Made by a program: the position numbers and the translations under genes. Shown piece by piece: positions 44,001 to 64,000 of a DNA stretch of 64,000 bases. The DNA comes from Harmothoe impar. Taxonomy: Eukaryota > Annelida > Polychaeta > Phyllodocida > Polynoidae. The DNA is taken from NCBI GenBank assembly GCA_947462335.1, contig OX381707.1:60737773-60801772 (forward strand). The letters run 5' to 3'. Numbering within the stretch: the first letter of the stretch is position 1; each line of letters starts with the position of its first letter. Under the pieces are notes generated by a model. It had not been told where the DNA came from. It saw only the letters and a list, made by a program, of their open reading frames with translations, and did no database searches.

Positions 44001-44196
44001 GAGTAGTATATGATAAAACAATAGAACAGGGTCAAAAGAGGTAATAGAGAACGGAAGCTATTTTGTATTTTATGACTTAATGGTTGAAGTGAGATTTCAT
44101 TGTATCACTCTTTTGGATCGTAGTACTTTGGATTGGGTTAACGCGAGCAAGACGTTGTCTACTAGAATCGCTGAAATCTAGGATTGATTTACTATA
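41055..44196. other. Non-coding region and left flank of the Polinton-like element
   Basis: Contains a tRNA-like fragment near 42100, a 13-bp hairpin at 43018-43048 and a short self-complementary ACGGTGAC motif near 43183-43199. The left terminus of the Polinton-like element must fall here or just inside. I cannot place it without the right terminal repeat, which is outside the window. Confidence 0.45.
42085..42150 (-). repeat. tRNA-derived fragment (possible SINE head)
   Basis: The minus strand contains a perfect T-arm (GTGGG stem, TTCGAAC loop, CCCAC stem) with a B-box. No complete cloverleaf can be formed with the sequence upstream, so it is a tRNA-derived SINE relic rather than a gene. 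Confidence 0.4.
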
Positions 44197-44781
44197 ATGG
44201 AGCGTCTATATCGTCATCATGATATGGAAGTTTCTTATATTTATCATGATAAAACACACATGGACGACTTGGATTGCCTGATAACAGAGGACGATTCATT
44301 TAGCAAATTCCCAGCTACACAAAATATAACTATCCCTATGGATTTTAAGTACTTGGAAAAGGCTTGGGATCTTTCTGAAAGAGACAGTTCAGTTAGTGAT
44401 TCTTGTCTTGTTTTGACTCCTTTGTTTGAAGCTTTGAAAGCCTTCTTAGACATTATCAAGGAAGAGACTGACTATTTTCTTGTGCAACGTTTGGATACTT
44501 TAGAGAGAGCTAATGTGAGATACGGATTCATGAATTTAGTATTTTATGGACATGCTGTCGTGAGGAACGCCAAGAAAACAAGGCTGACTCCATTGATAGA
44601 AACAAAGGAGTTTATTGCTTTGTTGAAAGCTGGTTATGCTTATAATTCTGATTTGTTCTCATGTATTCAGATTGAGACTAGATCTCAGTTTAAAGGACTG
44701 TTATTGAGTTTAATTTATGACTCTATGTTATGTCAGCATGGTCAAAGTCATTCTCGACCTTTTTATGGTTGGTCTAAATGA
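44197..44781 (+). CDS. Accessory protein A, paralogous family member 1
   Basis: Encodes 194 residues, not a family I recognise. It aligns by eye with the products at 46380-46931 and 48450-48938. Shared features are an acidic N-terminal third, an I-x-I-P motif, an E-T-D-(Y/H) motif, the block YNxxLFxxIxxxTxSxFxxLL and a C-terminal F-x-GW followed by S or E. It is predicted soluble and mostly helical, with no signal peptide or membrane segment. It lies at the outer left edge of the element, where Polintons keep lineage-specific genes. A host-interaction role is plausible but not shown. Confidence 0.75.
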   Translation: MERLYRHHDMEVSYIYHDKTHMDDLDCLITEDDSFSKFPATQNITIPMDFKYLEKAWDLSERDSSVSDSCLVLTPLFEALKAFLDIIKEETDYFLVQRLDTLERANVRYGFMNLVFYGHAVVRNAKKTRLTPLIETKEFIALLKAGYAYNSDLFSCIQIETRSQFKGLLLSLIYDSMLCQHGQSHSRPFYGWSK

Positions 44782-46113: not shown

Positions 46114-46186
46114 GCCTGGTTAGCTCAGAAGGGAGAGCGTCAGACTTTTAATCTGAAGGTCGCGAGTTCAATCCTCGCACCAGGTG
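46114..46186 (+). tRNA. tRNA-Lys (anticodon UUU)
   Basis: A complete 73-base cloverleaf: acceptor GCCTGGT paired with ACCAGGT (first pair G-U), D-stem GCTC/GAGC, anticodon stem TCAGA/TCTGA with loop CTTTTAA (anticodon TTT), variable AGGTC, T-arm GCGAG-TTCAATC-CTCGC. A-box (TAGCTCAG) and B-box (AGTTCAATCC) Pol III promoters are internal, and TTTT lies at 46193-46196. CCA is not encoded. The T-arm differs from the usual animal tRNA-Lys, suggesting divergence after capture. It sits inside the viral-type element between accessory genes. Confidence 0.9.
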
Positions 46187-46279: not shown

Positions 46280-46379
46280 TTGAGCAATTTAGCCGTGGTT
46301 AACACAACAAGTCTATGAGGGCGCTATTTTAGTTCACGCTGCATGGTAGAGAAGACTGTTCTTTTTACTGCTAGACAAA

Positions 46380-46931
46380 ATGTCTGAATCAGACACAGAT
46401 TTTGAATTAGAAATTATTTTGTGGGATGAAGTAGATAGAGACGATTATCATACATGTCCAGAAGATGATATTTTAGACTACACTTCTACGAAAAGCATTA
46501 TTATTCCTATACAGCGACAGTGTGTTGATGATGTGTATAAGGCTTTAAATGGGCATTCAGTAGGAAGTTTATCAGAAGAGCTGTTAGAAATCGTTGATTC
46601 TTTAAAAAGATTTTTAAAAGAAATAGACGGGGAAACAGACCACATTGCGGTATTTCGAAATAATTTGTACGAGGTTCATGACGCTATTCACATTGTAGTC
46701 TATTGCGATCAAATAATACACTCTGATGACGGATTGATTAGAATAGATCAATTAAAACAATATCAACGTTTACTAGTTGCAGCAAGGAATTATAATCAGG
46801 AACTGTTTCAGATTGAAACTATTGACACTAAAAGCCGATTCAGATCTTTATTAGTATCAATGCTGAAGGATTCAGAGATGTTTGTCAATGGACTCATAAG
46901 AGCGTGGGCTTTTCACGGGTGGAGTCAGTGA
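46380..46931 (+). CDS. Accessory protein B, paralogous family member 2
   Basis: Encodes 183 residues from an ATG preceded by CTAGACAAA. It is very acidic at the N-terminus. It shares IxIP, ETDH, YNQELFQIET, DTKSRFRSLL and the terminal FHGWSQ with proteins A and C. There is no signal or membrane segment and I do not recognise the family. The three-fold amplification inside one element suggests selection for dosage or diversification, as seen for host-directed viral genes. Confidence 0.78.
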   Translation: MSESDTDFELEIILWDEVDRDDYHTCPEDDILDYTSTKSIIIPIQRQCVDDVYKALNGHSVGSLSEELLEIVDSLKRFLKEIDGETDHIAVFRNNLYEVHDAIHIVVYCDQIIHSDDGLIRIDQLKQYQRLLVAARNYNQELFQIETIDTKSRFRSLLVSMLKDSEMFVNGLIRAWAFHGWSQ

Positions 46932-47795: not shown

Positions 47796-48445
47796 CTGGT
47801 CAAAGTGGTGCGAGAGTAGTGCAAGTTCAGGCATCAACCGCTAGAGGGGGTGAAAAGAGGTCTTCCCCGTTTAAAACTCCTCTGAAAAAGAGGAAAGTCA
47901 TCTCTGTGTGGAAGTGGGTTCTAGACAGGGGAACAGACCTTTCTATTCAGGAATCTAGTAATTGCTATTTCGGCAAGGCCAACTGCGAATTCTCTTTAGA
48001 GCTTAAAAGAGAGAACTTAAAAAATCAAGAGGACAGTCAAGATTATGAACTCACTTTAAAAGAAGTGCAGAAGCCCCTCCCCTCTCCAGTAGAGTTAGCT
48101 ACTAAAGTGTATGAGTATCTTCTTCGTCTGGAGTTTGCTCAGAAAGTGAAAGCAGCTTATTCTGGAGCAGGTTACTGCACTCCTGAAGAGTTTGATGATG
48201 ATGATGATGATGGTGATTGCGTCTTAGAAAATCATATCAAGAAGTATTCAAGGACGTGCCACCTCAAGATCTCCATTACTCGCTTGCTAGAGGGTTGTAG
48301 CACTCTTTCCCCTTTCTTCGAGCGAGCAGGATACGTCAAATACGTCGACGCAGTCGAAGTGCTGGATGAGGTAGATCCTCAAGTCGTTCTCAGGAAAGGA
48401 AAATCCGAATTTGAAAACGAGTTCTGCGAGCTTGAGCTGATATAA
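47082..48445 (+). CDS. Accessory protein D, two-exon gene with nuclear localisation signal
   Basis: Exon 1 is 47082-47362 and exon 2 is 47653-48445. The intron starts GTAAGT and ends TTATTTCAG after a polypyrimidine-rich stretch. The joined frame has 357 codons plus stop. Exon 1 encodes an internal duplication (two TFRGV-centred blocks). Exon 2 has an Asp-rich run (about residues 128-141), an SV40-like NLS KTPLKKRKV (about 168-176) and a second Asp run. I do not recognise the family. Acidic tracts plus NLS suggest a nuclear regulator or DNA mimic. The stop is only 4 bases before the next ATG (48450), so both may share one transcript. Confidence 0.75.
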
Positions 48446-48449
48446 TACA

Positions 48450-48938
48450 ATGTGTTTCGATCCAACATATAACTTTGTGATTATCTTGCCCAAAGAAGAC
48501 CTAGCAAAATTAAAAGAACTGTTTTCTCTTCCTTTAGAAGAAAGGATGTATGACAGCGAAGAAACACAGCAATTAGTGCACGGAATTGAGAGTTTCATAG
48601 ACCAGTTCTCTTCAGATCTATGGCACACTACAGAACATATAGCGGCTACTTACACTGATGAAAACTCGAAGTATGCCACTGAGAATCTTGCTGCAATTCA
48701 GATCATTTTCTACAACTGTGAATTAGTCACAGGGTTAAAGGTGACGGACACTTCGGAATTTAAATTCCTTAAAAAACAGCTAGACAAGAACCCTGTCATC
48801 AGTTACATGATGCACAGAATAAAAATGAAAGGGCTCTTTAAGACTGAGTGGCAAGAGCTAATGGAGTATGGTGAGTGGCTCTCTGAGAGCGCTACGTACC
48901 TAGAGCCCTTTTTTGGCTGGGAGGAATGCCCTTGTTAA
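48450..48938 (+). CDS. Accessory protein C, paralogous family member 3
   Basis: Encodes 162 residues and is the most diverged member of the A/B/C family. It retains the ExIxxFIDxF region, TTEHIA in place of ETDH, a C-terminal helical block and the ending LEPFFGWEE. The ATG lies 4 bases after the stop of the NLS protein. An AATAAA signal is at 48951-48956, inside a palindrome just after the stop. Confidence 0.75.
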   Translation: MCFDPTYNFVIILPKEDLAKLKELFSLPLEERMYDSEETQQLVHGIESFIDQFSSDLWHTTEHIAATYTDENSKYATENLAAIQIIFYNCELVTGLKVTDTSEFKFLKKQLDKNPVISYMMHRIKMKGLFKTEWQELMEYGEWLSESATYLEPFFGWEECPC

Positions 48939-49768: not shown

Positions 49769-50665
49769 TCATACTTCAGTTTCAACAATGTTGTCGTACA
49801 CAATATTGTAAAACTTGTAATATTCAAATTCTGTCGACGTTGATCTGTTGCATGGTTTTTTCTTGACTAAGTAGACAATCCCAATCACAGCTATCACTCC
49901 CATTATAAGACTAACACTTATCCAAACAGGTAACAATTGGGGAGATTGGTTTAGTTCAACAGTATCAGCAGCAGAAGCAGGAGGAGGAGGAGGAGGAGCA
50001 GTAGTTTGATAAACTTTGAAAGTATCAGAATCAGTTTGTGTATCAATAACAGGTGAAGTAGTGATTTGTTTCAGAGTTGTAGAAACAAAGTTTGTTTCTA
50101 TACTTCCTTCAGTACCGGTAGAACTAGGTTTTACAGTCCATAGAGTTAATTCAGGATCATAACTGACGCTGGCCGATTTAGTAGTAGTATCTAGAGTTTG
50201 AGTAGACAATGGGCTATTTGTTCCAGGACCTTTAGAGGTCGTGATGTGGGTAGTGGTGACAAATCCGGCGTCTGTGGAAGTGTGAGTCACCTCCTTTTCC
50301 TGTTTAGCTATCGTAAAATCCGAAGGTGTAGAAATGTAAGTAGGATGTACGAGGCAGTTCCATCTGATAGTATAGTTTACGTCTTGAGGAATAGAATCGC
50401 AGTCAAAACTATCCCATTGATCTCTTATGTCTACGATTTTAAGACTTTGAAATTTCTGAAACACAGCTGTGTTGAATTTAATCATTTTGCATAGTCTCCA
50501 GTCTAAGTGATAATAGTGATGGTTATTCCAAATGTGAAAAGACTCAGGATCGACTTGACGACAAGTGATGACTCCCTCTTTGCAGTCACACTTTTCACAT
50601 ATATCGATTTGGCAATTTGTTAATCCAAAAAGAAGCACAAACCCGAGTAAAATAGAACTCTCCAT
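49769..50665 (-). CDS. Mucin-like type I membrane protein 1
   Basis: Encodes 298 residues from ATG 50665. There is a signal peptide (about 1-18), a small Cys-rich ectodomain with CEKCDCKEGVITC, LDWRLC, VDIRDQ and further cysteines, then a long Ser/Thr/Pro-rich stalk. A transmembrane helix near the C-terminus (WISVSLIMGVIAVIGIVYLV) is followed by KKK and a short Tyr-rich cytoplasmic tail. The ectodomain recalls an LRRNT cap, one leucine-rich repeat and a C-terminal cap. It is paralogous to and divergent from the gene at 51261. Likely a surface or envelope glycoprotein; attachment or decoy roles are inference. Confidence 0.8.
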   Translation of the reverse strand: MESSILLGFVLLFGLTNCQIDICEKCDCKEGVITCRQVDPESFHIWNNHHYYHLDWRLCKMIKFNTAVFQKFQSLKIVDIRDQWDSFDCDSIPQDVNYTIRWNCLVHPTYISTPSDFTIAKQEKEVTHTSTDAGFVTTTHITTSKGPGTNSPLSTQTLDTTTKSASVSYDPELTLWTVKPSSTGTEGSIETNFVSTTLKQITTSPVIDTQTDSDTFKVYQTTAPPPPPPASAADTVELNQSPQLLPVWISVSLIMGVIAVIGIVYLVKKKPCNRSTSTEFEYYKFYNIVYDNIVETEV

Positions 50666-51260
50666 TTTGGGTTTCCTCTGTTCTCTTCGGCTGTATCCCG
50701 TTAACCTAGTTCTATTTAACACAGACGGAATTGATAGTAACTTTACCCGTATGAGAGGCGGGAAATCGCTTAACCTAGTTCTTCAAGCATATACTTAGTT
50801 AGACAGTTCGGGTTATTACCGCTAAAACTTCTGCTTGGAGAATATATTCAGCGTCTGCGCTGTCTCCATGCTGATGTCTAACCTTCTTCGTGTAGTACAC
50901 TGACACTGAACAACGGGTGGGAGAGTGAATATGCGGGTCATTTGTTCTGCGAGGCTGATTCACTCTCCCACCCGATGTTCAGTGTCAGTGCAGTATAGCG
51001 GTAGCGTTAAACAACGGGTGGGAGAGTGAATCAACCTCGCAAGAAGAAATGATGTGTTTATTTGATTTAATAAGATTATGCATCATCTACGTTTACATTT
51101 GCGTATTTATTAAACAAATAATACGGCAATATTTAAACATTAAGTAAACTGTCTTGAAACTTATCTTTTAAAACAAAATTTAAAGACCGGTCTCGACGAC
51201 TGCTTCAGTGTAGTCGCCGCGAAATGTGAATTCAGAACTCAGAGGATAATCGCGTACGAA
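50666..51260. promoter_or_regulatory. Divergent promoter region with cruciform
   Basis: It separates two divergently transcribed membrane protein genes. It contains a 33-bp inverted repeat (50898-50930 with 50958-50990, one mismatch) built on CGGGTGGGAGAGTGAAT. A third copy of the core lies at 51013-51030, followed by CAACCTCGCA, which mirrors 50949-50958. It could be a shared enhancer/operator or an origin-like structure. Confidence 0.65.
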
Positions 51261-52046
51261 ATGCTTACAGAAATGCGAGTGTTTGGATTAGTGAGTCTTT
51301 TCATTGCAACAGTTGTATTCTTCGGAAGCTCGACATCGCTACTATGTGATGAGTGTACTTGCCGTCGAGCAACAGTCACTTGTCGCCACGAACATATTGT
51401 TGGACTGTTTAAAATGGAGAGGGCTAGAGGCTTAGTGCATGGAAGAGTTCACAAACTAGACTTGCGCTTCTGTTGGATTGGGGCCCTGACTGAAGAACTC
51501 ATTTTGTCTGTCTTCCCTCACGTCAAAGTCTTAGATATAAGAGATTCGGAACTAATTTGTGATCAACGCTACTTGAATTTTAGCGGCAAGTCTTTTACGA
51601 CTAAATACAGTTGTGATTTAGACACGCTTCTAACTACGACGACTACAACTTCAGTGACATTGAGTGACAAAACTAGCACTGTCGCTACAAAGACTACTAC
51701 TAAGGTTCGAATTCCAATTTTTCTACCCACTACACGCCGAGCTATTGTTGTAAGGACGACAACAACAACAACAACAGAGTCAGCCACTACTGACCCTCCT
51801 TTCAATCCCGCCCTTCAACAATATACTGCGACCCTCGCTTGGTGGGTCTATGTATTGATCGCTGTTGTCGTGATGTTGCTTATTGCTCTTATTGGGGTGC
51901 TTATATACATCAGAAATAGAGCTCACCCCCCTATACCGGATATTCCTCTAGACATGTTGTCTAAACATCTGCATAAAAGGAGGTCTTCACCACCTCCTAG
52001 CAGTCCGTCTTCTTCTCAAACGTTGGTAACTATTCTTTTCTTTTAA
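51261..52046 (+). CDS. Mucin-like type I membrane protein 2
   Basis: Encodes 261 residues: signal peptide (about 1-27), a Cys-rich ectodomain with CDECTCRRATVTCRH, LDLRFC, VLDIRDSELICD and a final Cys pair, a Thr-rich stalk with runs of Thr, a transmembrane segment (VYVLIAVVVMLLIALIGVLI) and a cytoplasmic tail rich in Pro/Ser. It shares the C-x-x-C-x-C...TCR...LxLRxC...DIRD order with protein 1 and is clearly its paralogue. A second in-frame ATG is four codons downstream. Confidence 0.8.
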   Translation: MLTEMRVFGLVSLFIATVVFFGSSTSLLCDECTCRRATVTCRHEHIVGLFKMERARGLVHGRVHKLDLRFCWIGALTEELILSVFPHVKVLDIRDSELICDQRYLNFSGKSFTTKYSCDLDTLLTTTTTTSVTLSDKTSTVATKTTTKVRIPIFLPTTRRAIVVRTTTTTTTESATTDPPFNPALQQYTATLAWWVYVLIAVVVMLLIALIGVLIYIRNRAHPPIPDIPLDMLSKHLHKRRSSPPPSSPSSSQTLVTILFF

Positions 52047-52202
52047 GCTTGCTAATCAAGCCTTAAATGTAAATAGTTTTGAATATAAATGTTTATAAGC
52101 ACGTCTATTAATACATGTATATAAGCATGTCGCTTGAATAACTAATATAATGTGACTCATAATATAGCATGTCGCTTAAATAGCTCCAAGCTGTGTATTG
52201 AC

Positions 52203-52249
<47 letters not shown>

Positions 52250-53651
52250 GATAAGTTTATGCTAAAGGAAATTTTGAAATAATTTATCCTCAGTGAGCTG
52301 TTTGACGCAGAGCAGCTGTTTCCTGGACGGTATAGAGGGAGACAGCAGCAAGTCGAGGAAATTGGAGCTTTCGCCTAGCTCTGCAGACTACACTGCTAGT
52401 CAGCTAGACTACGTCAACTACCCTCTTCTCTCAGCTACAGACTTACATGCAAGACTACACTTCTAGACGTCTAGACTACTTCAACTACTCTCCTTTCAAC
52501 ACAAGGATATGCCTTCTCTCAAGTACTACAGACTTACATGCAAGACTACACTTCTAGACGTCTAGACCACGTCAACTACTCTCCTTTCAACACAAGGATG
52601 TGCCTTCTCTCAGATAGAGACTTACATGCAAGACTACGCTTCTTGACGTCTAAACAACGTCAACTACTTTCTATCATATAGTTTTTGTCTTGTTTTTTGG
52701 TTGTTAGATTGTCGCCCAATCTAGATGGAAGGTTCTTACTAGACTAAGACTGACTGACTGACTGACTGACTGACTGACTGACTGACTGACTGACTGACTG
52801 ACTGACTGACTGACTGACTGACTGAAATATCTGTGATTATTCCGCTTTTGAGTTGTTGTTGTTGTTATTGTTGTGTCAAATCTGTGATTTTGAATCGTGT
52901 TCGATCGGCATTGTCATTGTCATTGTCATTTTTAGTGTGCGTGTGTGAATTGTTAGGTTTGTTAAAGCTAATGAAAACATATAATCATTATTTGCTAGTC
53001 ATATAATCTTATTACTATATATTAGATGCATAAAAGCTTAGTGTGTGTGATTTAAAGTAGTAAATCATTTAACTGCTATGTATTTCACTGTATATCAAGT
53101 CGATTAGTGTGTGTGTTAGTAAGGAATCATTCACTGAGTATTTAGTACCGGTACTCTTAGCACTCACTGCATATCAAGCTGATAAGTGTATGTTATTTAG
53201 TATAAGCAACGAATCAGTATTCTTAGTATAAGCATATAACTATATTTTGTTTACTCAAGTTCATAGAACAATCATGTTATCAGGTATTACATGAATATCA
53301 GGTGCTAATCTATATGCTAAACACGCTATCAGGTATCTTTTTATTGAAGTCAAGTATTACATGAATATCAGGTGCTAATCTATATGCTATACATTCTATT
53401 AGATATTTTGTGAGAAAAGGCTCAGAGACATTGCCTAAGTATGCTAATCTATATCTTAAAACATGCTGCTTAGTATTTTACGATAATCAGACGCTAAATC
53501 ATTTATGTATTAACATGACAACTTTTAGTAAACTCTTCAGCGATAGATGAAACAAAAAAGTTCTTTTAAATAATGATAATAATAAATACAATAAATCAGA
53601 CAAATTGTGATCACATTTTATTTATTTATTTATTTATTTCATTTACATTGA
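52047..53651. repeat. Repeat-rich spacer within the Polinton-like element
   Basis: Holds a (TGAT)n microsatellite at 52203-52249 and three 88-91 bp tandem units starting ACTTACATGCAAGAC at about 52441, 52532 and 52620. A (GACT)n microsatellite lies at 52749-52824, two 76-bp units with ATGAATATCAGGTGCTAATC at about 53285-53400, and a TTTA run at 53607-53640. No ORF of note. The TTTA run reads AATAAA several times on the minus strand, just after the protease stop, so it probably supplies the poly(A) signal of the capsid gene cluster. Confidence 0.75.
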
Positions 53652-54071
53652 TTACAAGAAAGCAACTAGTCTATCATTATATTCAGTGTCAAAAGTAAAA
53701 TGGTTTACAAAGTATTTCAAGTCATGACCGCGACAGCGAAAATAAGCATACAGAATACAATAATCTCCACACACGTCACTAGTTTGGCTTTGAAGGCGAC
53801 GAGTAGAATACATATATGATTTATTCGCATTTATTAAGAAAGGTTTAACTTCGCGGGGTGGGTTCCCTAAAGAATCAAAATATTCAATGGTGTCAGATAA
53901 AAACAAACACACCCAATGCTTGCCAGGTCCAAAAGAACTGTCTGTGTTTACTACATATAATCCGGGTTTTTGACCTTTCATCCATAGTTCGTCATAAGCT
54001 ATTACCCCTTTGAAATATTTAGAAGTGTATGGATCATTTCTAAGATAGTGGGCGATTTCTAATTCATTCAT
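53652..54071 (-). CDS. Adenain-like cysteine protease (virion maturation)
   Basis: Encodes 139 residues. The catalytic set is visible: His in GKHWVCLF (about 52), Asp in EYFDSLG (about 66), Gln in RLQSQ and Cys in DVCGDYC (about 101), the layout of the adenovirus/Ulp1 (C5/C48) peptidases. It would process capsid precursors in the nucleus. Its ATG overlaps the TGA of the capsid gene by 4 bases (ATGA, 54071-54068). Last gene of the cluster. Confidence 0.92.
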   Translation of the reverse strand: MNELEIAHYLRNDPYTSKYFKGVIAYDELWMKGQKPGLYVVNTDSSFGPGKHWVCLFLSDTIEYFDSLGNPPREVKPFLINANKSYMYSTRRLQSQTSDVCGDYCILYAYFRCRGHDLKYFVNHFTFDTEYNDRLVAFL

Positions 54072-55402
54072 GTTTCAACAACAACGTTTCTGGCTTGATC
54101 AATTTTCATCAAAGCTTCAAAACTACCGTACACAATCACTGTAGTCGCATTTTCTAAGGCTTTTGCAAATTTAGCAGTGAGTCTAGTTTGACCCCTTCTT
54201 AGAGGGTTAGAATACAAGGCGTTCTTGCTTTTTTCTAAGTCAAAAACATAAATAGCATATCCGTGTAAGAAATCAAAGTAACTGATGTTTGGTAGTTCTT
54301 TCTGTTCAGGTGGTACACAGTCGAATAACCTACAATAAGTAGATGCGTAGTTCTTATCAGTAAAATTTGGTTGCATTGGTCGTCCTCCACAACTTTGACC
54401 GTCTATTTGAAAATCTAGATAATTCAAGTCAAAATTTTGGAAATTAAACGGGTTATGTTGGTTGTCAGCGCTGTATGCTGAAGATAGTACAAATCCGACC
54501 ACGAGACATTTAAGAATTGAATCTTGAAATAGATTATCCATAGTCCAAGTATAGCTGTCTTTTGGAATGTTATATGCCTTGATTTCGCTTCTGGTGAAAG
54601 GATATAGCGCCATTTCTTTCTTTAACATTTCACCATGAGCAGTTAACACACCTGGATGCATTCTAGCATACGGTACAAGTAAAGTTGCGTCTTGAATGAT
54701 CACAGAATATGATTTTGACGTAGTTGCATATGACGGATCTTTTGGATCAGGAGTTTTAAACATTAATGCAAAATTGTCAGGTGTAGGATAAAATTTTAAA
54801 TTGATAGGGAGTCCGTTAATTAACAGCCTGTCTTGTTGACAAATATCTACAAACATGTTAGCTTTCAATCTCAGAGTTTTTCCAGATTTAGTCATTTGGT
54901 GTCTGTTAGATAGACCAGTGTTACCGTCTCCTAATATAAAATCATCCATTGATTCTGCTGAATCTGGGTAAAATCCAGCTACACTCATAACAGTTTTACA
55001 TTCTTTTTCTCCTTTTTTCAAAAGAACATCAAATATAGCTTTATATGCATTATTACTTCCAACAGTAGACGTGATATTCTGCTGCTGAATTGAAAAATCA
55101 AACTGTCTAAACAGAGATGAGCTAGGTAAATTAATTAAAGAGACTATATTTTTAGCTGTGACTGGTTTGTTTTTATCGTCATTAATGATAACATCTAGCA
55201 GCAGTGAAATGTCTTTTAACACAATGTAATCAGAGGAATTGTTATGCACGTCAAATTCTAATGTAGACCCTTTAGAAATTTGCCCGATTGGACGATAGTC
55301 TTTGACATAAATATCTTGAATAGCGGTCTCGACTGGTGGGACATTAAATAGAGCTACTCTGTGGTCGAAACCTTCTTCTGCGTTATTCAACACAAATGTC
55401 AT
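54068..55402 (-). CDS. Major capsid protein, double jelly-roll (hexon-like)
   Basis: Encodes 444 residues. The N-terminal pattern ALFNVPPVETAIQD...RPIGQISKG...LEFDV...DYIVLKDISLLLDV, followed by SLFRQFDFSIQQQNI and NAYKAIFDVLLKKGEKE, is that of Polinton/adintovirus hexon-like capsid proteins. These form pseudo-hexameric capsomers from trimers. Length is in the lower range of the family. ATGA overlaps occur at both ends, with the basic protein gene upstream and the protease downstream. Confidence 0.9.
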   Translation of the reverse strand: MTFVLNNAEEGFDHRVALFNVPPVETAIQDIYVKDYRPIGQISKGSTLEFDVHNNSSDYIVLKDISLLLDVIINDDKNKPVTAKNIVSLINLPSSSLFRQFDFSIQQQNITSTVGSNNAYKAIFDVLLKKGEKECKTVMSVAGFYPDSAESMDDFILGDGNTGLSNRHQMTKSGKTLRLKANMFVDICQQDRLLINGLPINLKFYPTPDNFALMFKTPDPKDPSYATTSKSYSVIIQDATLLVPYARMHPGVLTAHGEMLKKEMALYPFTRSEIKAYNIPKDSYTWTMDNLFQDSILKCLVVGFVLSSAYSADNQHNPFNFQNFDLNYLDFQIDGQSCGGRPMQPNFTDKNYASTYCRLFDCVPPEQKELPNISYFDFLHGYAIYVFDLEKSKNALYSNPLRRGQTRLTAKFAKALENATTVIVYGSFEALMKIDQARNVVVET

Positions 55403-55698
55403 TTTCTTGATTTAGGCTTAGTCTTAGTAGTATTGCTGGTTTTAGTGACTTTTTTAACGGGTTTCTTTTTTGTGGACTGTCTCTTTGGCTTCCTAACAAC
55501 AGAATGACGAGTGCTAGGTCTGGAAGCTGTATTTACTTGTCTTTTTAAAGTTTCTTTAGCTCTCTCTATCACTCCTTGTTCTGGAGAAACTAAATTGAAT
55601 CCTGATCCTTTTCTTAGAGGGTAAAATTTTTTAGTCGATTTTTTGTTTGAAAGCTGTTTCCAGACTTCCATGTCTGGGATATACGGAACAAAACTCAT
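55399..55698 (-). CDS. Small basic virion-associated protein
   Basis: Encodes 99 residues starting MSFVPYIPDMEVWKQ, with a Lys/Arg/Thr-rich C-terminal half (KPKRQSTKKKPVKKV) like a DNA-binding tail. Polintons commonly have a short protein with a PYIPD..W start just upstream of the capsid gene; a role as a core or internal capsid protein is inferred. Its stop overlaps the capsid ATG (ATGA). Confidence 0.75.
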   Translation of the reverse strand: MSFVPYIPDMEVWKQLSNKKSTKKFYPLRKGSGFNLVSPEQGVIERAKETLKRQVNTASRPSTRHSVVRKPKRQSTKKKPVKKVTKTSNTTKTKPKSRK

Positions 55699-55754
55699 CT
55701 TAACTGTTCAAAGGTGTGTCTTCAACTGAAGCCCGTGCAGACTAAACACTAAAT

Positions 55755-56135
55755 TTATCGTTTCTTCAAATGCAACACTAAATATAGGTCGTTGAACTTA
55801 GAAGAAAGTAAGCTTCCATCTGACAACTTTAGTGAAAAATTGATCCTTGAAATGTATGTCCTAGATACTCGTATGTAATAAGCATTTGTATACTGAGCGC
55901 TTTTATTAAGAATTTTTAGCGTAGGTGCTAGCTTACCATGAACAATGCTGTTTTCTACTAAGTCACAATTGACATATAAAGGTTTAGACAATTTTGTTTT
56001 AAAACCACATTCTACAAGCGCACATTCCCAATGACCATCAAGTTCTAATGGTTTAGGAAGTTCCACTATAAATTCTGAAATTGTGTTATTCAAATAAATG
56101 TCTTGAGAATCTTTAGGACTAACGTACAGAAACAT
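55755..56135 (-). CDS. Penton-like minor capsid protein
   Basis: Encodes 126 residues. The start MFLYVSPKDSQDIYLNNTISEF, then PKPLELDGHWECALVECGF, matches the pattern of Polinton minor capsid proteins (x-YP-x-N-x-F...L-x-G-x-WEVAL-x-E). Those are single jelly-roll vertex proteins. It is shorter than usual, so it could be N-terminal only or a reduced form. It begins 31 bases after the integrase stop. Confidence 0.75.
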   Translation of the reverse strand: MFLYVSPKDSQDIYLNNTISEFIVELPKPLELDGHWECALVECGFKTKLSKPLYVNCDLVENSIVHGKLAPTLKILNKSAQYTNAYYIRVSRTYISRINFSLKLSDGSLLSSKFNDLYLVLHLKKR

Positions 56136-56166
56136 GTCACGACATCAAATGAAGATGTGTATCAGT

Positions 56167-57288
56167 TTAAGTTTGTTTTTGTAGATTTTTCAAGTCTCGT
56201 TCAGAGACCCAAGAATTATACTTTTTAGGCCAACCTATCCAACTTACTATACGTCCAGGGACTTTTTTCCGAGTCTCTCTTGTCAAAACTTCATCTACAG
56301 TATAAGTTGCATCATCTCTGACTATTATTTTTTCTAGTTCTTCTTGATAAAATTTACCTTCTACAGGATCATTATCCCAAGACTTGATAGAATATAATGC
56401 AATCTCCTGTTGAGTTTCTCTTTCTATTACTGTAAAGATCTCATATGTCCATTTTTCGTCATATGCGCGTTCAAATGGAGATCTATATCGAACTAATCGC
56501 ACTCTGTCTCCAATATTGAATTTATAAGGGGATCTAAGTTTAGGAGGTTTCTTTCTAACTCTAGGGTTTTTAAAATCATATTGGTTTTTCCATAGCGTGA
56601 CAGTATCATCTGTTTCTCGAGCTTGAGTTGGGGTCATTTTGATCGTTCTATGTTTAGACGTGTTGTAAGCTTTTGTGACATCATCTAATATGTCAATCCA
56701 ATTCTGTGTGTGGTTCTGATTCAGGTACTTAACTAATCGACGTTTCAAAGATTGAATTAACCTTTCAGACATTGCTTCTTTAACTTCGTTAGTAGTTGTA
56801 AAATGCTGAATACCTAAACGCCTTAAATAAGTTTGTGTTGATCTACCGGTAAATTCTTTTCCTTTGTCTGTTCTCAATTTAAGAGGTTTTTCTGTTGTAA
56901 ATACTGTATCTAAAGCAGTGACCATTTCTTTGCTAGTCAAAGATGTCAGAGGCACTGTCCAAGCATACCGGGTAAACACATCAATCATTACTAAAACATG
57001 TATGAAACCCTTGTTTTGTACTTTACTTTTCTTATTTCTGCTATATGCAACCATATTCATTGTGTCTGCTCCCCATTGTTGATTCTTAGCTGAGACAATT
57101 ATTTTAGGTCTTTTTATTTGTCGATTAGGTCTTGTGTGTAATGTAAATGTCTCTTCTCCTTCTAACCAAGATTTTACGTCTTTAAATTTGTAACCTAAAT
57201 TCTTTACAGCGTTGTACAAATCATAGACATCTCCATACGAAGCTGGGTGAGCGGGATCAAAATAAACTGCTGCTAAATCTGCATTCAT
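56167..57288 (-). CDS. Retrovirus-like integrase with C-terminal chromodomain
   Basis: Encodes 373 residues from ATG 57288. The N-terminal part has the Polinton pattern FDPAHPASYGDV...SWLEGEETFTLH. The RNase H-fold core has D75 (QWGADTMNMV), D141 (LRTDKGKEF) and E175 (EAMSERLIQSLK). An SH3-like segment (KFNIGDRVRLVRY) follows, then a chromodomain (YTVDEVLTRE...IVSWIGWPKKYNSWV). It would insert the linear genome into host DNA, the chromodomain biasing it toward modified histones. ATG overlaps the upstream stop (ATGA). Confidence 0.93.
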   Translation of the reverse strand: MNADLAAVYFDPAHPASYGDVYDLYNAVKNLGYKFKDVKSWLEGEETFTLHTRPNRQIKRPKIIVSAKNQQWGADTMNMVAYSRNKKSKVQNKGFIHVLVMIDVFTRYAWTVPLTSLTSKEMVTALDTVFTTEKPLKLRTDKGKEFTGRSTQTYLRRLGIQHFTTTNEVKEAMSERLIQSLKRRLVKYLNQNHTQNWIDILDDVTKAYNTSKHRTIKMTPTQARETDDTVTLWKNQYDFKNPRVRKKPPKLRSPYKFNIGDRVRLVRYRSPFERAYDEKWTYEIFTVIERETQQEIALYSIKSWDNDPVEGKFYQEELEKIIVRDDATYTVDEVLTRETRKKVPGRIVSWIGWPKKYNSWVSERDLKNLQKQT

Positions 57289-57405
57289 AACGGTTTCCAA
57301 AAGTCTGTCCAATCTTCTTCTTTTTCTTCTTCTTCTTCTTCTTCTTCTTCTTCTTCTTCTTCTTCTTCTTTAATTGTACTTAACGCTTTGCTGTTTCTTG
57401 AAGAG

Positions 57406-57439
<34 letters not shown>

Positions 57440-57929
57440 GCTTATATACCGGTACTTTTAGCTTGTCTTCTACTGGTGTTAGTTTAGACTCAACTGTTAT
57501 GCTTATGGGTTTTCTACCTACCGGTACTCCCGGTGGTAGAGGAAGTGATAATGATGTCAATCCAGACCCTATTAGCTTTCTTCTGTTAGGGTTTCTGACT
57601 AAAGTGTTTGGAATATTAGTTAAATTATTGTAAAAAAGTTCAAGTCCTATTGGTTCATAGTTTTTGTAATTGAACAAAGCGTCTTTTATCAAGTCTGTTA
57701 TATGAGAACCTTTAACTGGGTGGCTATCTATTATTATCTCACCTCTCTCATTCCAAGGTATGCTTTTTTCTACATATGATAAAAGAGCTTCTGCATTTCT
57801 CTTTTGATTTTTAGAAAATGGTTGAAGCACTAATTCTTTGTCTAATTTAGCGTCTACTATTTTGTTTGCTGTGACTGGTTCTGAAGTGTGAATATACTGA
57901 TCATACGGTACTAACGCCATTTTCTTCAT
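57285..57929 (-). CDS. Conserved Polinton protein with Ser and Glu tracts
   Basis: Encodes 214 residues. The start KMALVPYDQY and the LDKELVLQPFSKNQKRNAEALLSYVEKS region match a conserved, unnamed protein usually found next to the small basic helical protein in Polintons. The C-terminal third is low complexity: a poly-Ser tract and a long Glu run encoded by (CTT)n on the plus strand. Start and stop both lie in ATGA overlaps. A minor structural role is possible but not shown. Confidence 0.75.
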
Positions 57930-58249
57930 AGCAATTTTAATAGAGAGTCTTTAGCAGCTCTCAAGACGCTTATCATTTCCCGATAATGTTTTTTGATCAA
58001 CTTTAATTTAGAATTGAATGCTAGACGTTTTTTAACTAACTTCTGTAGCAAAATTTTATACTTTGTTGTCACTCTGCGGATTTTAGATGGTAGTTTCTTG
58101 ACACAGTTTAGTAAATTGTATGAAATTTCGCACAAAGCTTCTACTTGCTTAACTGTAGCTGTTGATAACAAACACCGCGCTTGTTCTACACTAGTGTTCA
58201 ATAATAGTTTGATGTAATCCGCCACAGCTCTTAACCGAGCAGAAGGCAT
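57926..58249 (-). CDS. Small basic helical Polinton protein
   Basis: Encodes 107 residues, almost wholly helical and rich in Leu and Lys. The motif STATVKQVEALCEISYNLLNC followed by a basic coiled-coil-like segment is a recurring signature of a short protein in Polintons and adintoviruses, sometimes compared to adenovirus core proteins. Its stop overlaps the next ATG (ATGA at 57929-57926). Confidence 0.75.
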   Translation of the reverse strand: MPSARLRAVADYIKLLLNTSVEQARCLLSTATVKQVEALCEISYNLLNCVKKLPSKIRRVTTKYKILLQKLVKKRLAFNSKLKLIKKHYREMISVLRAAKDSLLKLL

Positions 58250-58293
58250 AATTCAAATGACAACTAAAAGGTCAAGCATACAATATTTATCAC

Positions 58294-58773
58294 TCAAGTT
58301 GGGGTGTTTACATCAGAAGCTGAACACGCAAATGCTGATACATCTTCTAGCACATCAGGCTGGGTGGGTATTACAGGCATGTATGATCGAGTTTTAGACA
58401 AGTCTACTTCATCTGCATTATCTCTGACAAAGCGCATATTATTCACAGTATCTTGTATACGATTCAATTTCATACTATAGTCGTGAAGATTTTCCAGCAA
58501 TAACAACAAGACGTCTCTAGCATTAACAAGTCCATTTGACATTCTGTTTTTTATAAATGAACAGTAAGGCGAATGTCTTAAATGTTCTAAGTCTACAGTA
58601 TCAGTCGGTCTCCAAGAATGAAGAACTATACCACAATAATGACACTGTACTGAATCTGCGCCTCCAAGATAAAATAATCCAGACTCTACTAATTCTTTTG
58701 GATTAGTAAATCTATTCCATGACACAAAGGTTCTTTCTCTTGTTCCACGATCAGCAAATCTAGGATACTTCAT
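58294..58773 (-). CDS. BIR-domain (IAP-like) protein
   Basis: Encodes 159 residues from ATG 58773. A single baculoviral IAP repeat fills about residues 14-75: RTFVSW, LVESGLFYLGGADSVQC, then zinc ligands C44-x2-C47-x16-H64-x6-C71 with GIVLHSW between. This is the exact canonical spacing. No RING finger follows; the rest is helical and unassigned. BIR proteins bind caspases or act in mitosis. In an element of this kind the simplest inference is inhibition of host cell death. The ATG lies inside the ATPase end (14-base overlap). Confidence 0.88.
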   Translation of the reverse strand: MKYPRFADRGTRERTFVSWNRFTNPKELVESGLFYLGGADSVQCHYCGIVLHSWRPTDTVDLEHLRHSPYCSFIKNRMSNGLVNARDVLLLLLENLHDYSMKLNRIQDTVNNMRFVRDNADEVDLSKTRSYMPVIPTQPDVLEDVSAFACSASDVNTPT

Positions 58774-59398
58774 TTTTTGGCAGATAGACAACTGTAGTTT
58801 CAGTAGGAAATATGTTTGTTTTTAACCTCAAGTCTCTGATGTTATTAGGTGAAAGGTCCAACACTAAATAACCAAAAGGCTTCGACATGCAATCTTTATA
58901 CGCTTCTTCTAGGGTTTTTCCTAATCCAGTTTGTCTTCCTAGTAGTTTGATCTGATTGATATCTCGTTCATTTTTCATTAAGATTAAATAATGAGTATTT
59001 AACATGATAGTTTTTGCACACTTTCCTTGCTGGTAAAGATTTTGAACTAAATAAATGACTGTTATGTTTCGGTGATGAGAACCTCTAGTAAAAAGATTTT
59101 CTGCTGATGAACATTTCATGACGTCATTCATGAGATCATCTAATATGATTATAGCATGCTCGTCACCATTTAAAGAACCATTTGGAATATCTAATCCTTC
59201 TCTGAACTCTACTCCTCTCATGTCATTGAAAGCTTTTTGCCACGTTCCATAGCAGTATATCACACGAGTAGGTAGTGTGCTAAACAGACTTAAGTTGTCT
59301 AAAAGCTTTTTTAGCCAAGTAGTTTTACCTGATCCAGTTGTTCCACTGATAAGTATTGTAGTGGGACAAGAAAACACATAGTGTGGTACTTCATACAT
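58760..59398 (-). CDS. Genome-packaging ATPase (FtsK/HerA, A32-like)
   Basis: Encodes 212 residues from ATG 59398. Walker A is GTTGSGKTT (about 19-27), Walker B AIIILDDL (about 82-89), and a sensor-like segment is VIYLVQNLY. The length fits the Polinton/A32 packaging ATPases that translocate DNA into the procapsid. It starts 76 bases after the polymerase stop, and its end overlaps the BIR gene start. Confidence 0.92.
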   Translation of the reverse strand: MYEVPHYVFSCPTTILISGTTGSGKTTWLKKLLDNLSLFSTLPTRVIYCYGTWQKAFNDMRGVEFREGLDIPNGSLNGDEHAIIILDDLMNDVMKCSSAENLFTRGSHHRNITVIYLVQNLYQQGKCAKTIMLNTHYLILMKNERDINQIKLLGRQTGLGKTLEEAYKDCMSKPFGYLVLDLSPNNIRDLRLKTNIFPTETTVVYLPKNEVS

Positions 59399-59474
59399 GT
59401 TGAGAAATAATGAGAACAAAACAAAATGAGTTAGCTTATATAATATTTACTTATCGCTGACTTAGAATACAAAA

Positions 59475-62400
59475 TTACAAAATGTCTTGCCAATATTTCT
59501 CTCTTAATTCTTCCCACAACGTTCCTAGTGTATTTGAACCTCTATAATCAGAAGTCACAGCAGCGAGTCTAGACCCCATACCAATCCCCCAATACACATC
59601 TGACGCACAGTACAATAACTTTAAATGTGCTGTATTTCTCAATGTTTTTCTGACGGCTTCACAGACTCTCATTTTTTCAGTAAGAATTTCTATCATAACT
59701 TGTCTCCTGTGCTGTAACCACACAGAGTTTAAATTCATTTTCTGTTCATGCACTTCTTCATTGAAAGGTATACTGTTCTGAGTCTTTAGCTGGAAATCAT
59801 AAGCTTCAGCTGCTGAATTGAATTCTTGATTGTATAACTTTAATTTACAAGGATACTCATTAGCTAAAGAGTGTGAAGTTGTAGCTGAAAACGCTTCATA
59901 TGGAAGTATTTTCCAAGGCGATAAAGTCATAGCTAATGGTGACGTTGTAACACCGTCATCAGATACTATCCTTTTACAATAGTAATAGGACAATCCTGAT
60001 CTTTCTTGAGCATAGGTAAATATAGTGTTGTCTTTTACACGAAATCCTTTGTTCAATCCGCTAGCGTTTTGTTGGTTATTTAACACATTTTCATAGTCCT
60101 CCATAGGCTGTGACAAAGCGTTTTGGTTTATCCCTTTGCAGACAATCTTAAAGTAGTCATCGTCTTTGAGAATGTAAGTCTTGCTGCACAATGCGATCAT
60201 TTCAGTACCGCTAGCCTCTAACTGAAAAGAAATAGTAATAATAGATATCTAAGATTCATATAAACTTGCAAATTGTTTATAACGCAGACTAAATAATGTT
60301 AGCTTTAATGCAATATCACTAACGGGTATCAAAGATTCAGCTGTTACAACAAAACTATGCAATATTGTTTATCACACAAAACTAAAACAATGATAATTTT
60401 GACACAATAACAAACAAGAAAACTCACTCACTTTAAACAACCCGGGAGTCCTCTTGTCGTAATTCATATGTTCAGCACAACATTGACGAGGTAACCAATT
60501 AAACAAATCGGCTTCATGTTTAGAAGAATGACAACTTCCATAAACTCTCTCATTATATTCAGCCATCATTTCAGGCTTGATGACTGATTCTAAAGTATCT
60601 CCACTTATTGCAAAATAAGCAGAATCTAGAAAATAAATAAAAGAAAAGAAAATATTAGAAAAGAAAATCATCTAGCAACTATTTCTAGATAAGTCTTGTT
60701 AACTTAATAACTGCAAAACTTACCTGTGTCCATTTCCAGATATTCAAAATCCTCTCTTTTCACAAACTTGTCCAGAAAATCATAGTACCATTGCAGCATT
60801 CTTAGCTTAGCGTATTGTAAAATGAAATATCCTAGATATATAGGCAAATTCATATTGATCACTTTCTTCACTGATTCGACCTCAAATAATTCATCGTCTA
60901 ATTCAGTCATCTTCCTGTACTCAGGTTTATTTGCAGCGAGGCATGCTTTTCTTTTACCAGTGCAGTATCTTACGTTTGTATGCTTCTCTTTGTCCATGAT
61001 CAGGCTACCATAGCCAGAATTACCGATTAACTTCATTGTATCAGCTATAATAGATTTAGATTTGTCCTTGTCTCCTTCACGTCGGGCTTCAGACACTTCG
61101 TCTTGAAAATCTTTGAAGCAGCGCTTTGGCGTAAACTCTACTACTTGATAGATTTTAGTCACTTTCATCCCATGATCTAGATACCATTTCAGTAATGGAG
61201 TAGCCAACAATATCTTTTGTGCAGACATTCCTCCGACTAACAGTCTTCTAGGGTCCTGAAACATAGAACAAATTGACACATTAATACTGTATAGTTAGTT
61301 AGTTAGTTTTAGCTATAGCAAGATTTCATTGATAATGCAAACACTTACTTGTGACAAGTTCTTTTTCTTGACATGATCTTGCATATGTGAACCAATCTCT
61401 TCAAAAGGGATCTCAGTAGTACAAAATATCGGAGACATTTCAGAGAAATATTGAGAAGGAGTCAAGTGAGATAAAGACCGGTCTTCTTCTCCCCATTCAT
61501 TCGGTACCTAGATCAAATAAACCCATAGTTTGATAATTAAGTTTTATAAGCAAAAGAGACAACTACCTGTAACATTGATAAACTAACGTCATTCCCTCAG
61601 CTCTTAAACTAAATAAAAAAGATGATTGTATTTCAATACTAGTATTCACACATACTTACAGTTATGTCGACTTCTACAACTCCAAACAAATCTCCTTTCT
61701 TGACATAGTGTAGAATTTCAGTTTCTGTCATCTTTCCAGGGTGTTTTTTAGAAAACTCAGGTAACACATTCATTTCTTGCAGACCAGGTTCAGTAGATTT
61801 AAGACGACGAAACTCGCATTCCCAAACTGTCTTAATAGAATATCCCATTGATACTAAATAGTCTTCTATTAGCTGAGTGTTCTTTTTTCTTTTCAGTCTC
61901 TCTTTCTCTTCTAGCTTATTTTTTTGACATTCACATCCATGTATGTAGCAACCATAAAACTGAAAAACAAAATAAAAAAAGGGTCTTATAAATCTACTAC
62001 TGCTACTAGTATGCAGTAGCGAGTTCAAAAAATAAAATACTTTTTGAGCAGTATCATAATTGCTTGATTGATGGATAATTCCTTAAATAGTTTATAGATA
62101 TGTATATACTCACTACCGGGTACCTGATATTGATAATCATTCTTTACTCACTTCATAGATAGTTTTTGTTTGAGCGCAATATCCGTCAGCCAAGAAAGGT
62201 CCTACTCTCTTCTCATGACCAGAGTTGAGCTTGTGTATGATGTCCACCCCCTCTACCGCTGTTCTCCAATCTAACCATTCATACATACTGACGTAATGGA
62301 CTTGTCTTGTTGGTTTGAAATCGTCATCACGATGTCTTCTGACATAGACATTTGTGGGTAGGGGCATTCCCAATGAATAGAGGTATAAAGCATTTGAGTC

Positions 62401-63947
62401 AAACCCCACTACTCTCTTACACAATTTATTGCCTCTGATACGAGTTTCATTAGCTTTGTGATGTCTGTGAAATATAATAGAAGGCCCCCCTACGATATTA
62501 GTTTTAAAAGTTCTATATAAATCCTCGTCTAAAGGACTAAATAACTGAAAATGAGTGTTATTTCTTTTAGCTGTATCAAACAGCATCTTTCTAGCAATAC
62601 CGGGTACAGACATAGCTATCTTGAATATGTCTATATTTCTGTCAAAATAGAACTCTTGTAATTTAATCACTGCTGCTACAAAAGGTTCTACATCTTTATT
62701 GTTGTACCAAATGAGGAAATCTCTAAATGTTCTCATGTTGTTTTCCTCCCAGACAGTCTTAAGATATTCATAATCTACTTCGCTGATATTAGTCTCTTTC
62801 AAAGTCGAGTAAAAAACTTCACGAGGGGGTAGATTTGTTTCTTCTAATTTGTCTACTGAATCAAAGTATTCATAAGGAAACATCCCTTTCTTTTCTTTTA
62901 TACCATAAGCTTCAAGAAATCTCGTATAATTTGATCCAGGAGCTAAAAAGTGGATAATGTCTAACATTTTAAAACGTTCAGTGCTGATATTTGTGTAAGA
63001 GTTATTTCTTTTGATAACATAGCCGTTCTTGTTGTTTTTTCCAAAATCTAAATGATTGAACAGCTTAGACTTGATCAAGTTAATGTCATAATTAGATGAA
63101 TTGAATCCAAGAATCGGTAATTGATTGATGTAATTTTTAAATTTTGTATATATCATTTTCAATTTGTTAGACATGATAGTTTTAGCTTTTTTGAGATTTT
63201 GATTCTCTACAGCGTCGCTATTGTCTTTTATGAAATCATAATCCCTCACTTCTTCCCCCTCCTCTTCCTCCTCTTCCTCTTCCTCCTCCCTCTCCTCTAC
63301 TTCTACTTCCATCTCTTCTTCTTCTCCGTCTGACTCAAGAGTCAAATCTACAGTGGCTTCTGGAGGTCTCCATTTCTCTATTTCTATTTTTAAAGAATTC
63401 ATAACTTTACCCCATTCTTTTTCTGAGTGTTTTTTAGCTTCTTCTTGTATTTGTGTCAAATACGCGATCATTTTAAGCAACAAAGAATCTAAATCATCGT
63501 CTATGATACATTTAGGTTCAATAAAATTTGGAACATTGCTACATACAGATACTGATATAGGGCGATGCTTCTGAAACCATTTCAGTTTATCAGTAGGACG
63601 TTCGTCATGCTTTTCCAACATAGCTTCCATATCAAACACAGCAAAATATGGATAGAGCTTTTTACATTTTGATGTATCTATACCAAACTCTTCTAACTCT
63701 TCAAAAATAGTAGGAGTAGGTTGGAAGAATCCCCCTGGAAATTTAAGTTTTGTTCGTCCAGTACATATTCTAATATGAGCTTTATATTGACTGACTGTGC
63801 TGACGTGTTTGTTGCAAGTAGGACATTGGTATTTTTTAGCATAAGTGCTAAATTCCTTGATGAAAGATAAATGACCGTTGTACAAGTTAGTGTACATAAC
63901 AGACTTAAATCGAGAAGAAGGTTTATATTGCAATACAGCCACACTAT
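59475..63947 (-). CDS. Protein-primed DNA polymerase B, spliced, with C-terminal NADAR-like domain (5' end outside window)
   Basis: Exons run 63947-62152, 61959-61660, 61507-61349, 61255-60724, 60625-60432 and 60221-59475. All internal introns are GT-AG and keep the frame. The upstream boundary at 63947 is a probable acceptor, so more exons lie beyond 64000. Visible parts are a C2H2-like finger (CPTCNKHVSTVSQYKAHIRIC) and exonuclease motifs FAVFDMEAM, GFNSSNYDINL and WYNNKDVEP. Polymerase motifs are A (GFDSNALYLYS), B (KLIGNSGYGS) and C (MDTDS), the last split by an intron. After the usual end (KRIVSDDGVTTSPL) the frame continues about 150 residues (59903-59478). That part contains HSLANEYPCKLKLY, FNSAAEAYDF, WLQHRRQVMIEIL, DVYWGIG and GSNTLGTLWEELRE, the order of a NADAR/YbiA domain. 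Confidence 0.9.
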
Positions 63948-64000
63948 CTGGTTGAAGGTCATATATATATACAAAGAGACTTCAAAACACTTTTCAAAAT

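What the first reader, a model, noticed from the sequence alone, without database searches (positions are those of the whole stretch)
59475..59905. Polymerase B fused to a NADAR/YbiA-like domain
The last exon encodes the normal Polinton polymerase C-terminus and, in the same open frame, about 140 further residues. These follow the NADAR order: S/H-x-LxNxYP, (F)xSAAEAY, W-x-x-x-R-x-x-VM-x-x-I, D-x-x-WGIG, G-x-N-x-LG. NADAR enzymes are reported to remove ADP-ribose from guanine in DNA. Joining such an activity to the replicative polymerase would place lesion reversal at the fork and could counter a host DNA ADP-ribosylation defence. The motif order is seen; the function is inference. I do not know whether this fusion is already described.
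Basis: partly seen in the sequence, partly recalled or inferred. Interest (0 to 1): 0.9.

Follow-up and report, generated by a model that had tools for sequence, protein, structure and literature searches.

The report
Polinton DNA polymerase with NADAR tail
A virus-like mobile element in an animal genome has its DNA-copying enzyme joined to a domain that normally strips ADP-ribose off guanine bases, but in this copy the domain seems to have lost catalytic residues and probably survives as a non-enzymatic part of the polymerase.

The parts
59475..60221 (-). last exon of the Polinton polymerase gene: PolB C-terminus, NADAR domain, stop codon
   Evidence: open frame; CAG acceptor; alignment with relatives
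59925..60221 (-). part of that exon encoding the PolB C-terminus
   Evidence: alignment with fused and unfused polymerases; Foldseek matches to viral PolB models
59478..59924 (-). part of that exon encoding the NADAR domain with its SPW linker
   Evidence: Pfam E 5.8e-12 on 59478-59903; model and fold match
60222..60431 (-). last intron, GTGAGT...TTTTCAG
60432..60625 (-). polymerase exon that begins inside the DTDS motif
   Evidence: sequence read
60626..60723 (-). intron splitting the DTD|S catalytic motif
60724..61255 (-). polymerase exon with motif KLIGNSGYGS
61349..61507 (-). polymerase exon (borders by introns 61256-61348 and 61508-61659)
61660..61959 (-). polymerase exon with the FYGCYIHGC motif (borders by introns 61508-61659 and 61960-62151)
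62152..63981 (-). open frame with the exonuclease motif DMEAML and a C2H2 finger; upstream end of the gene lies beyond or near the window edge and was not determined
   Evidence: zinc finger below Pfam cut-off
58760..59446 (-). packaging-type ATPase of the same element (context)
   Evidence: Pfam Pox_A32 E 1.8e-6, over cut-off
56167..57369 (-). rve integrase with weak chromodomain match (context)
   Evidence: Pfam rve E 1.1e-14; Chromo below cut-off
54068..55411 (-). capsid-like ORF (context, named by eye)
   Evidence: read; Pfam gave no family
53652..54074 (-). adenain-like protease ORF (context, named by eye)
   Evidence: read; Pfam gave no family

Best explanation
A Polinton lineage captured a NADAR domain, probably once, at the C-terminus of its family B DNA polymerase. 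The ancestral fusion was probably a competent NADAR, since P0017 still has the complete catalytic set. In the window's branch the domain kept its fold and a conserved core (W89, R93, YWGxG, GxNxLG) but lost the catalytic Glu, shortened the segment before the helical core, and probably lost the ribose and phosphate contacts. In a third branch it shrank further. It most likely works now as a non-catalytic module on the polymerase: a structural extension of the C-terminus, or a docking surface for DNA or another replication factor. Shown here: fold, fusion, conservation, loss of the catalytic position. Inferred: single capture, loss of enzyme activity, present role.
For: Fold. Fusion in 30 of 61 relatives. 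Motif C in the same ORF in 16 of those 30. Glu at the E125 place: 0 of 10 complete window-type rows (window included), 1 of 3 group A, 33 of 35 viral rows, 13 of 13 fully aligned rows from the same genome. Retention: 26 invariant tail positions over 10 rows, 46% mean tail identity against 55% for the polymerase part. One clade of 14 fused NADARs, 97/94. Precedent in this polymerase family: inactivated vOTU domains in adenoviruses, suggested by the authors to be repurposed (PMC11071308, passages).
Against: No activity, binding or expression data exist here. Loss of Glu does not prove loss of activity: phage NADARs have His and others Asp at that place (PMC11543638, PMC11125620, passages). A one-residue shift of the alignment would keep E43 in 10 of 11 and K/R at K50 in 6 of 11 window-type rows (read). 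R79 is also not kept in most LINE NADARs of the same genome, so its absence says little. The polymerase tree alone does not show one origin (4 changes) and there group B is not one clade, though it is. Group C as a NADAR derivative rests on moderate scores. The stem of group B is long, so attraction of fast rows is possible.
Confidence: 0.55

Rival explanations
1. Active eraser at the fork: the domain removes ADP-ribose from guanine in DNA being copied and so counters host DNA ADP-ribosylation.
For: NADARs tested in two papers hydrolyse guanine-ADPr (passages); fusion to a replicase is where such an activity would be useful; P0017 keeps E43, K50, W89, R93, E125, D130, W133.
Against: No Glu, Asp or His from W-9 to W-6 in 10 of 10 complete window-type rows; shortened segment (29 residues from the E of SAAEAY to W, 41 in YbiA; counted); group C lost more.
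Confidence: 0.15
2. ADP-ribose reader: catalysis is lost but the pocket still binds ADP-ribose on DNA or on PARP-modified proteins and tethers the polymerase there, as non-catalytic macrodomains do (recalled).
For: W89, R93 (11 of 11) and W133 (10 of 10), which contact ADP-ribose in 8bau, are kept (contacts from PMC11543638, passages).
Against: In the aligned register K50 is Leu or Met in 11 of 11 and E43 is Glu in 2 of 11; these tryptophans may be kept for the fold alone.
Confidence: 0.15
3. Decaying relic: the tail has no present function and is on its way out.
For: Catalytic position lost, then strong reduction in group C; some relatives end without it; P0029 and P0045 look frameshifted in the tail.
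Against: Open frame and 26 invariant positions at 46% identity; retained in 10 window-type relatives beside the window.
Confidence: 0.1
4. The last exon is not part of the polymerase mRNA.
For: No transcript data.
Against: The exon itself begins with the PolB C-terminus; GT-AG borders; uninterrupted ORFs with motif C plus tail in 16 relatives.
Confidence: 0.03

Closest known systems
YbiA-type NADAR enzymes (E. coli YbiA 2b3w; P. nicotianae NADAR 8bau)
   Different: fused to a DNA polymerase; catalytic Glu absent; shorter middle segment
NADAR in LINE ORF1 proteins (Tx1 LINEs of Crassostrea gigas) and Gypsy Pol of Ectocarpus (PMC12477816, passages)
   Same: capture of NADAR by a protein of a mobile element; LINE cases also found in the window's genome
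   Different: retrotransposons, not a DNA-polymerase element; LINE copies here keep the catalytic Glu and lie outside the Polinton clade
NADAR in polyproteins of animal RNA viruses beside the RNA polymerase (PMC9503650, passages)
   Same: NADAR carried with a viral replicase
   Different: RNA viruses and polyproteins; no PolB and no Polinton named in the passages seen
Polinton pPolB with TP, vOTU, exonuclease and palm (PMC11071308, passages); PolB-helicase fusions (PMC12721341, passages)
   Same: same polymerase family, known to gain and inactivate extra domains
   Different: those extra domains are N-terminal, or helicases; NADAR has 0 occurrences in both papers by the counts
DarT-associated NADAR antitoxins
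   Same: NADAR tied to guanine ADP-ribosylation of DNA (PMC11543638, passages)
   Different: the Asp of that subfamily is not seen at the place; no DarT gene was looked for in the element or genome

Membership tests
NADAR (PF08719) fold family | profile match over the curated cut-off | tested here: met
   46.6 bits against 35.1; P0002 39.9, P0003 47.2
NADAR (PF08719) fold family | YbiA/NADAR fold | tested here: met
catalytic NADAR hydrolases | Glu (or Asp or His) at the E125 place | tested here: not met
   none from W-9 to W-6 in the window and in 10 of 10 complete window-type rows
catalytic NADAR hydrolases | E43 and K50 | tested here: inconclusive
   not met in the aligned register (window Ala and Leu); met if the helix is shifted by one residue
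catalytic NADAR hydrolases | guanine-ADPr hydrolysis | not testable with these tools
   needs an assay
riboflavin-intermediate N-glycosidase (TIGR02464) | score over 73.7 bits | tested here: not met
   49 bits
Polinton | rve integrase and packaging ATPase beside PolB | tested here: met
   PF00665 E 1.1e-14, PF04665 E 1.8e-6
Polinton | capsid protein and protease | tested here: inconclusive
   ORFs read by eye; Pfam gave none
Polinton pPolB | PolB motifs | tested here: met
   KLIGNSGYGS and intron-split DTDS read; Pfam PolB model did not reach E 0.1 on the window exons; it matched P0026 below cut-off; fold matches to viral PolB
Polinton pPolB | TP and vOTU N-terminal domains | not tested
   upstream end lies at or beyond the window edge
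Polinton | terminal inverted repeats | tested here: inconclusive
   one end lies beyond the window; only weak arms inside 51500-64000

The most novel reading that the evidence does not exclude
Polinton polymerases once carried, and in the P0017 branch still carry, a fork-coupled guanine de-ADP-ribosylase. In the same animal genome LINE ORF1 proteins carry NADARs with the catalytic Glu, so DNA- and RNA-based mobile elements would have armed their replication proteins in parallel against a host nucleic-acid ADP-ribosylation system (guanine-modifying ADP-ribosyltransferases are known from clams; recalled, not looked for here). The window branch later turned the eraser into a binding module.
Probability: 0.15. 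Interest if true: 0.9.

Novelty: new variant of a known kind. Interest (0 to 1): 0.62.

Why it matters
It shows a fold known for reversing DNA ADP-ribosylation built into the replicase of a virus-like element, with a readable path from a complete active site (P0017) to a degenerate one (window type) to a probable remnant (group C). Set beside the LINE ORF1-NADARs of the same genome, it raises the idea that ADP-ribosylation of nucleic acids presses on mobile elements in some animals, which purified domains can test. It also marks a large group of Polinton polymerases.

Tried and rejected
First structure job (8-sequence alignment) gave pLDDT 36.8 and was discarded. IMG/VR scans with the exon, A2, P0019 and P0010 gave no relatives; genome-contig scans with A3 and A5 gave none. 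A NADAR-only protein search gave none at E 1e-3; its length limit shuts out P0002 and P0003. The polymerase tree did not by itself show one origin of the fusion. In one search nine rows were dropped: P0047, P0057, P0062 (end too early to tell), P0029 and P0045 (tails apparently frameshifted), P0061 (already dropped for few polymerase letters), and P0008, P0055, P0058 (long branches). In the NADAR tree L052, L059 and L062 were left out because the domain match was cut short, and group C, P0016 and P0020 were not entered. Of 44 viral NADAR loci I aligned 35. Sequence search of P0006 against the PDB found no polymerase. VIA-align listed no polymerase chain; that is no evidence against the PolB part. 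Other copies of the polymerase exon in the window's genome could not be counted: that search did not complete.

Literature behind 'no report found': Polinton + NADAR, 0 papers; 20 of 37 listed; 15 of 27; 20 of 942; NADAR + PolB, 10 of 22 listed; NADAR + Maverick, 10 of 15; YbiA + Polinton, 0; NADAR + retrotranspos, 15 of 115. The listed papers of 93 and 94 and all but one of 110 look from their titles as if 'Nadar' were a personal name; I opened none of them except PMC12477816. Subscription papers and bioRxiv were not searchable; Pfam/InterPro architecture lists and the paper that named NADAR (recalled) were not seen.

Full report
Observation. The minus-strand frame 60248-59478 is open for 257 codons and ends in TAA at 59477-59475. 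The exon starts at 60221 after a TTTTCAG acceptor. Residues from LEASGTEMIALCSKTYIL to about SPLAMT align with Polinton PolB C-termini. The last 142 residues match Pfam NADAR with E 5.8e-12. PHROG 1017 is matched over positions 10-152 of 170. The match to TIGR02464 is below its cut-off.

Is the exon part of the polymerase? Five introns upstream have GT-AG borders. One splits the catalytic DTD|S motif in frame. In relatives whose frame is uninterrupted there, polymerase motif C and the tail domain share one ORF in 16 proteins: 2 of 3 group A, 5 of 10 group B, 9 of 15 group C. P0002 and P0009 begin with the same FQ|LEASG boundary as the window's last exon, which suggests a shared last intron. 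I had no transcripts.

How widespread. The single exon found 7 proteins, two with the fusion. The 3-sequence profile found 61. Of these I count 30 with the tail domain, a reduced form or a piece of it: group A, full-length NADAR (P0017-P0019); group B, window type (P0002, P0003, P0009-P0016); group C, strongly reduced (P0021-P0028, P0030-P0033, P0035, P0036, P0041); and P0034 and P0020. P0016, P0020 and P0041 hold only part of the domain. Thirteen of 61 have NADAR in the precomputed Pfam column. The other 31 lack the domain or cannot be judged. The grouping is mine, by eye. No hosts are named for the 30; their contigs reach 2.8 Mb.

Is group C really NADAR? Profile comparison of C with B: probability 92.9, score 47.2, against at most 18.9 in 40 column shuffles; of C with phage and E. 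coli NADARs alone: probability 64, score 34.5 against at most 22.3. A profile of 35 viral NADARs scores 13 of 14 group C tails above every reversed control; P0024 is the exception. P0026 has a Pfam NADAR match at E 0.093, below cut-off. I take group C as a reduced derivative with moderate confidence.

Active site. Roles are from PMC11543638 (passages): E43 and E125 hold the distal ribose, K50 the phosphate; R79, W89, R93, W133 and D130 also contact ADP-ribose. The E125 place is Glu in 33 of 35 viral NADARs, 1 of 3 group A and 0 of 10 complete group B rows, window included. In group B no E, D or H lies between W-9 and W-6, which does not depend on the alignment. K50 is Lys in 35 of 35 viral and 3 of 3 group A rows; in group B the aligned column is Leu or Met in 11 of 11, and E43 is Glu in 2 of 11. 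A shift by one residue would keep E43 in 10 of 11 and K/R at K50 in 6 of 11 (read); the helix start and the aromatic pattern favour the unshifted register, but this is judgement. W89 and R93 are kept in 11 of 11 and W133 in 10 of 10. The viral set was found by similarity to a phage NADAR and by a pattern next to the active site, so it may overstate conservation. P0017 aligns with 8bau at E 1.9e-12 and has E43, K50, W89, R93, E125, D130 and W133; its R79 place is Lys.

Selection. In group B (10 complete rows) the tail has 46% mean pairwise identity and the polymerase part 55%, with 26 invariant tail positions. Six of the 10 group B proteins other than the window end in a CxxC...CxxC tail; the window frame stops before it, and one unfused relative, P0059, has such a tail too.

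The same genome. The window lies in a 1.51 Gb assembly. NADAR gave 3484 first-look candidates, of which 150 were scored and passed the cut-off; the window's own copy is not among those listed. I read 16 loci: 8 given by the tool and 8 chosen by me mostly for long frames. Four are stand-alone NADAR ORFs (L049-L052). Twelve lie in ORFs that look like LINE ORF1 proteins, 10 of them with an endonuclease/RT-like ORF visible by eye. Pfam was run on one LINE locus and one stand-alone ORF; the LINE locus gave NADAR plus Exo_endo_phos. In the 13 of 16 that aligned fully, E43 and E125 are Glu in 13 of 13, and K50 is Lys in 12 and Arg in 1. The three partial rows are L052 (Glu) and L059 and L062, which show Lys in that alignment although the end of the same ORF reads LIESTVDSYYGGG. 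So the Polinton copy differs from these in the loss of the Glu.

Origin. In a NADAR tree of 63 rows the 14 Polinton-fused ones (A, B, P0034) are one side of a branch with 97/94 support; LINE, stand-alone host, viral and E. coli NADARs lie on the other. P0017/P0018, then P0034 (84/38) and P0019 (98/87), branch before B. The stem of B is long, so attraction of fast rows cannot be dismissed. The polymerase tree needs 4 changes between fused and unfused; holding all fused rows together is not rejected (AU p 0.28), nor is B plus C (p 0.208). Group B is one clade but not. One capture with some losses is the simplest reading, not a proven one.

What is known. NADARs reverse guanine ADP-ribosylation (PMC11125620, PMC11543638, passages). 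Retrotransposons with NADAR are published: Ectocarpus Gypsy Pol and Tx1 LINE ORF1 of Crassostrea gigas (PMC12477816, passages), so the LINE cases here are of a known kind. RNA-virus polyproteins carry NADAR (PMC9503650, passages). Known Polinton PolB domains are TP, vOTU, exonuclease and palm (PMC11071308, passages). NADAR domains of nematode SNA-3 are needed for its function (PMC9303266, passages). For NADAR on a Polinton polymerase I found no report in the searches listed under Tried and rejected, which cover open-licence papers only.

Verdict. Fusion: confirmed, conserved in relatives, and undescribed as far as I could search. Enzyme at the fork: unlikely for this copy, open for P0017. Most likely a degenerate NADAR retained as a non-catalytic module; its exact role is inference.

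Noticed in passing
own genome, loci L053-L064: NADAR is very common in this genome: 150 of 150 scored places passed the cut-off, out of 3484 first-look candidates. Of 12 long-frame loci read, all look like LINE ORF1 proteins with a NADAR domain, from several families.
   Followed up: partly
own genome, loci L049-L052: Stand-alone NADAR genes of 183-268 codons that keep the catalytic Glu; three of them group with viral NADARs in the tree.
   Followed up: partly
58294-58821 (-): A BIR (inhibitor-of-apoptosis) domain ORF inside the Polinton, between ATPase and integrase (Pfam E 1.8e-16); a paper search returned a list without an obvious report of it (12 of 665 listed).
   Followed up: partly
P0059 and six group B proteins: A CxxC...CxxC tail follows the NADAR domain in 6 of 10 group B proteins, and a similar one follows the polymerase end directly in the unfused P0059.
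   Followed up: no
44188-44781 (+), 46350-46931 (+), 48441-48938 (+): Related ORFs of unknown family beside the Polinton: the first two are 27% identical (E 1e-16); the third looks similar by eye. Pfam found nothing over cut-off.
   Followed up: partly
49769-50782 (-), 51144-52046 (+): Two related type I membrane-protein-like ORFs (E 8e-6); the second has a weak, below cut-off match to adenovirus E3A glycoprotein (E 0.0015).
   Followed up: partly
46114-46186 (+): A tRNA gene (Rfam, 68.2 bits) among the ORFs beside the Polinton.
   Followed up: no
18002-20725 (-) and 29589-32537 (-): By eye, a tyrosine-recombinase retroelement (DIRS/Ngaro-like) and a LINE with endonuclease and RT ORFs.
   Followed up: no
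62152-60222 (-): The Polinton polymerase gene has at least five introns, one of them inside the catalytic DTDS motif.
   Followed up: partly
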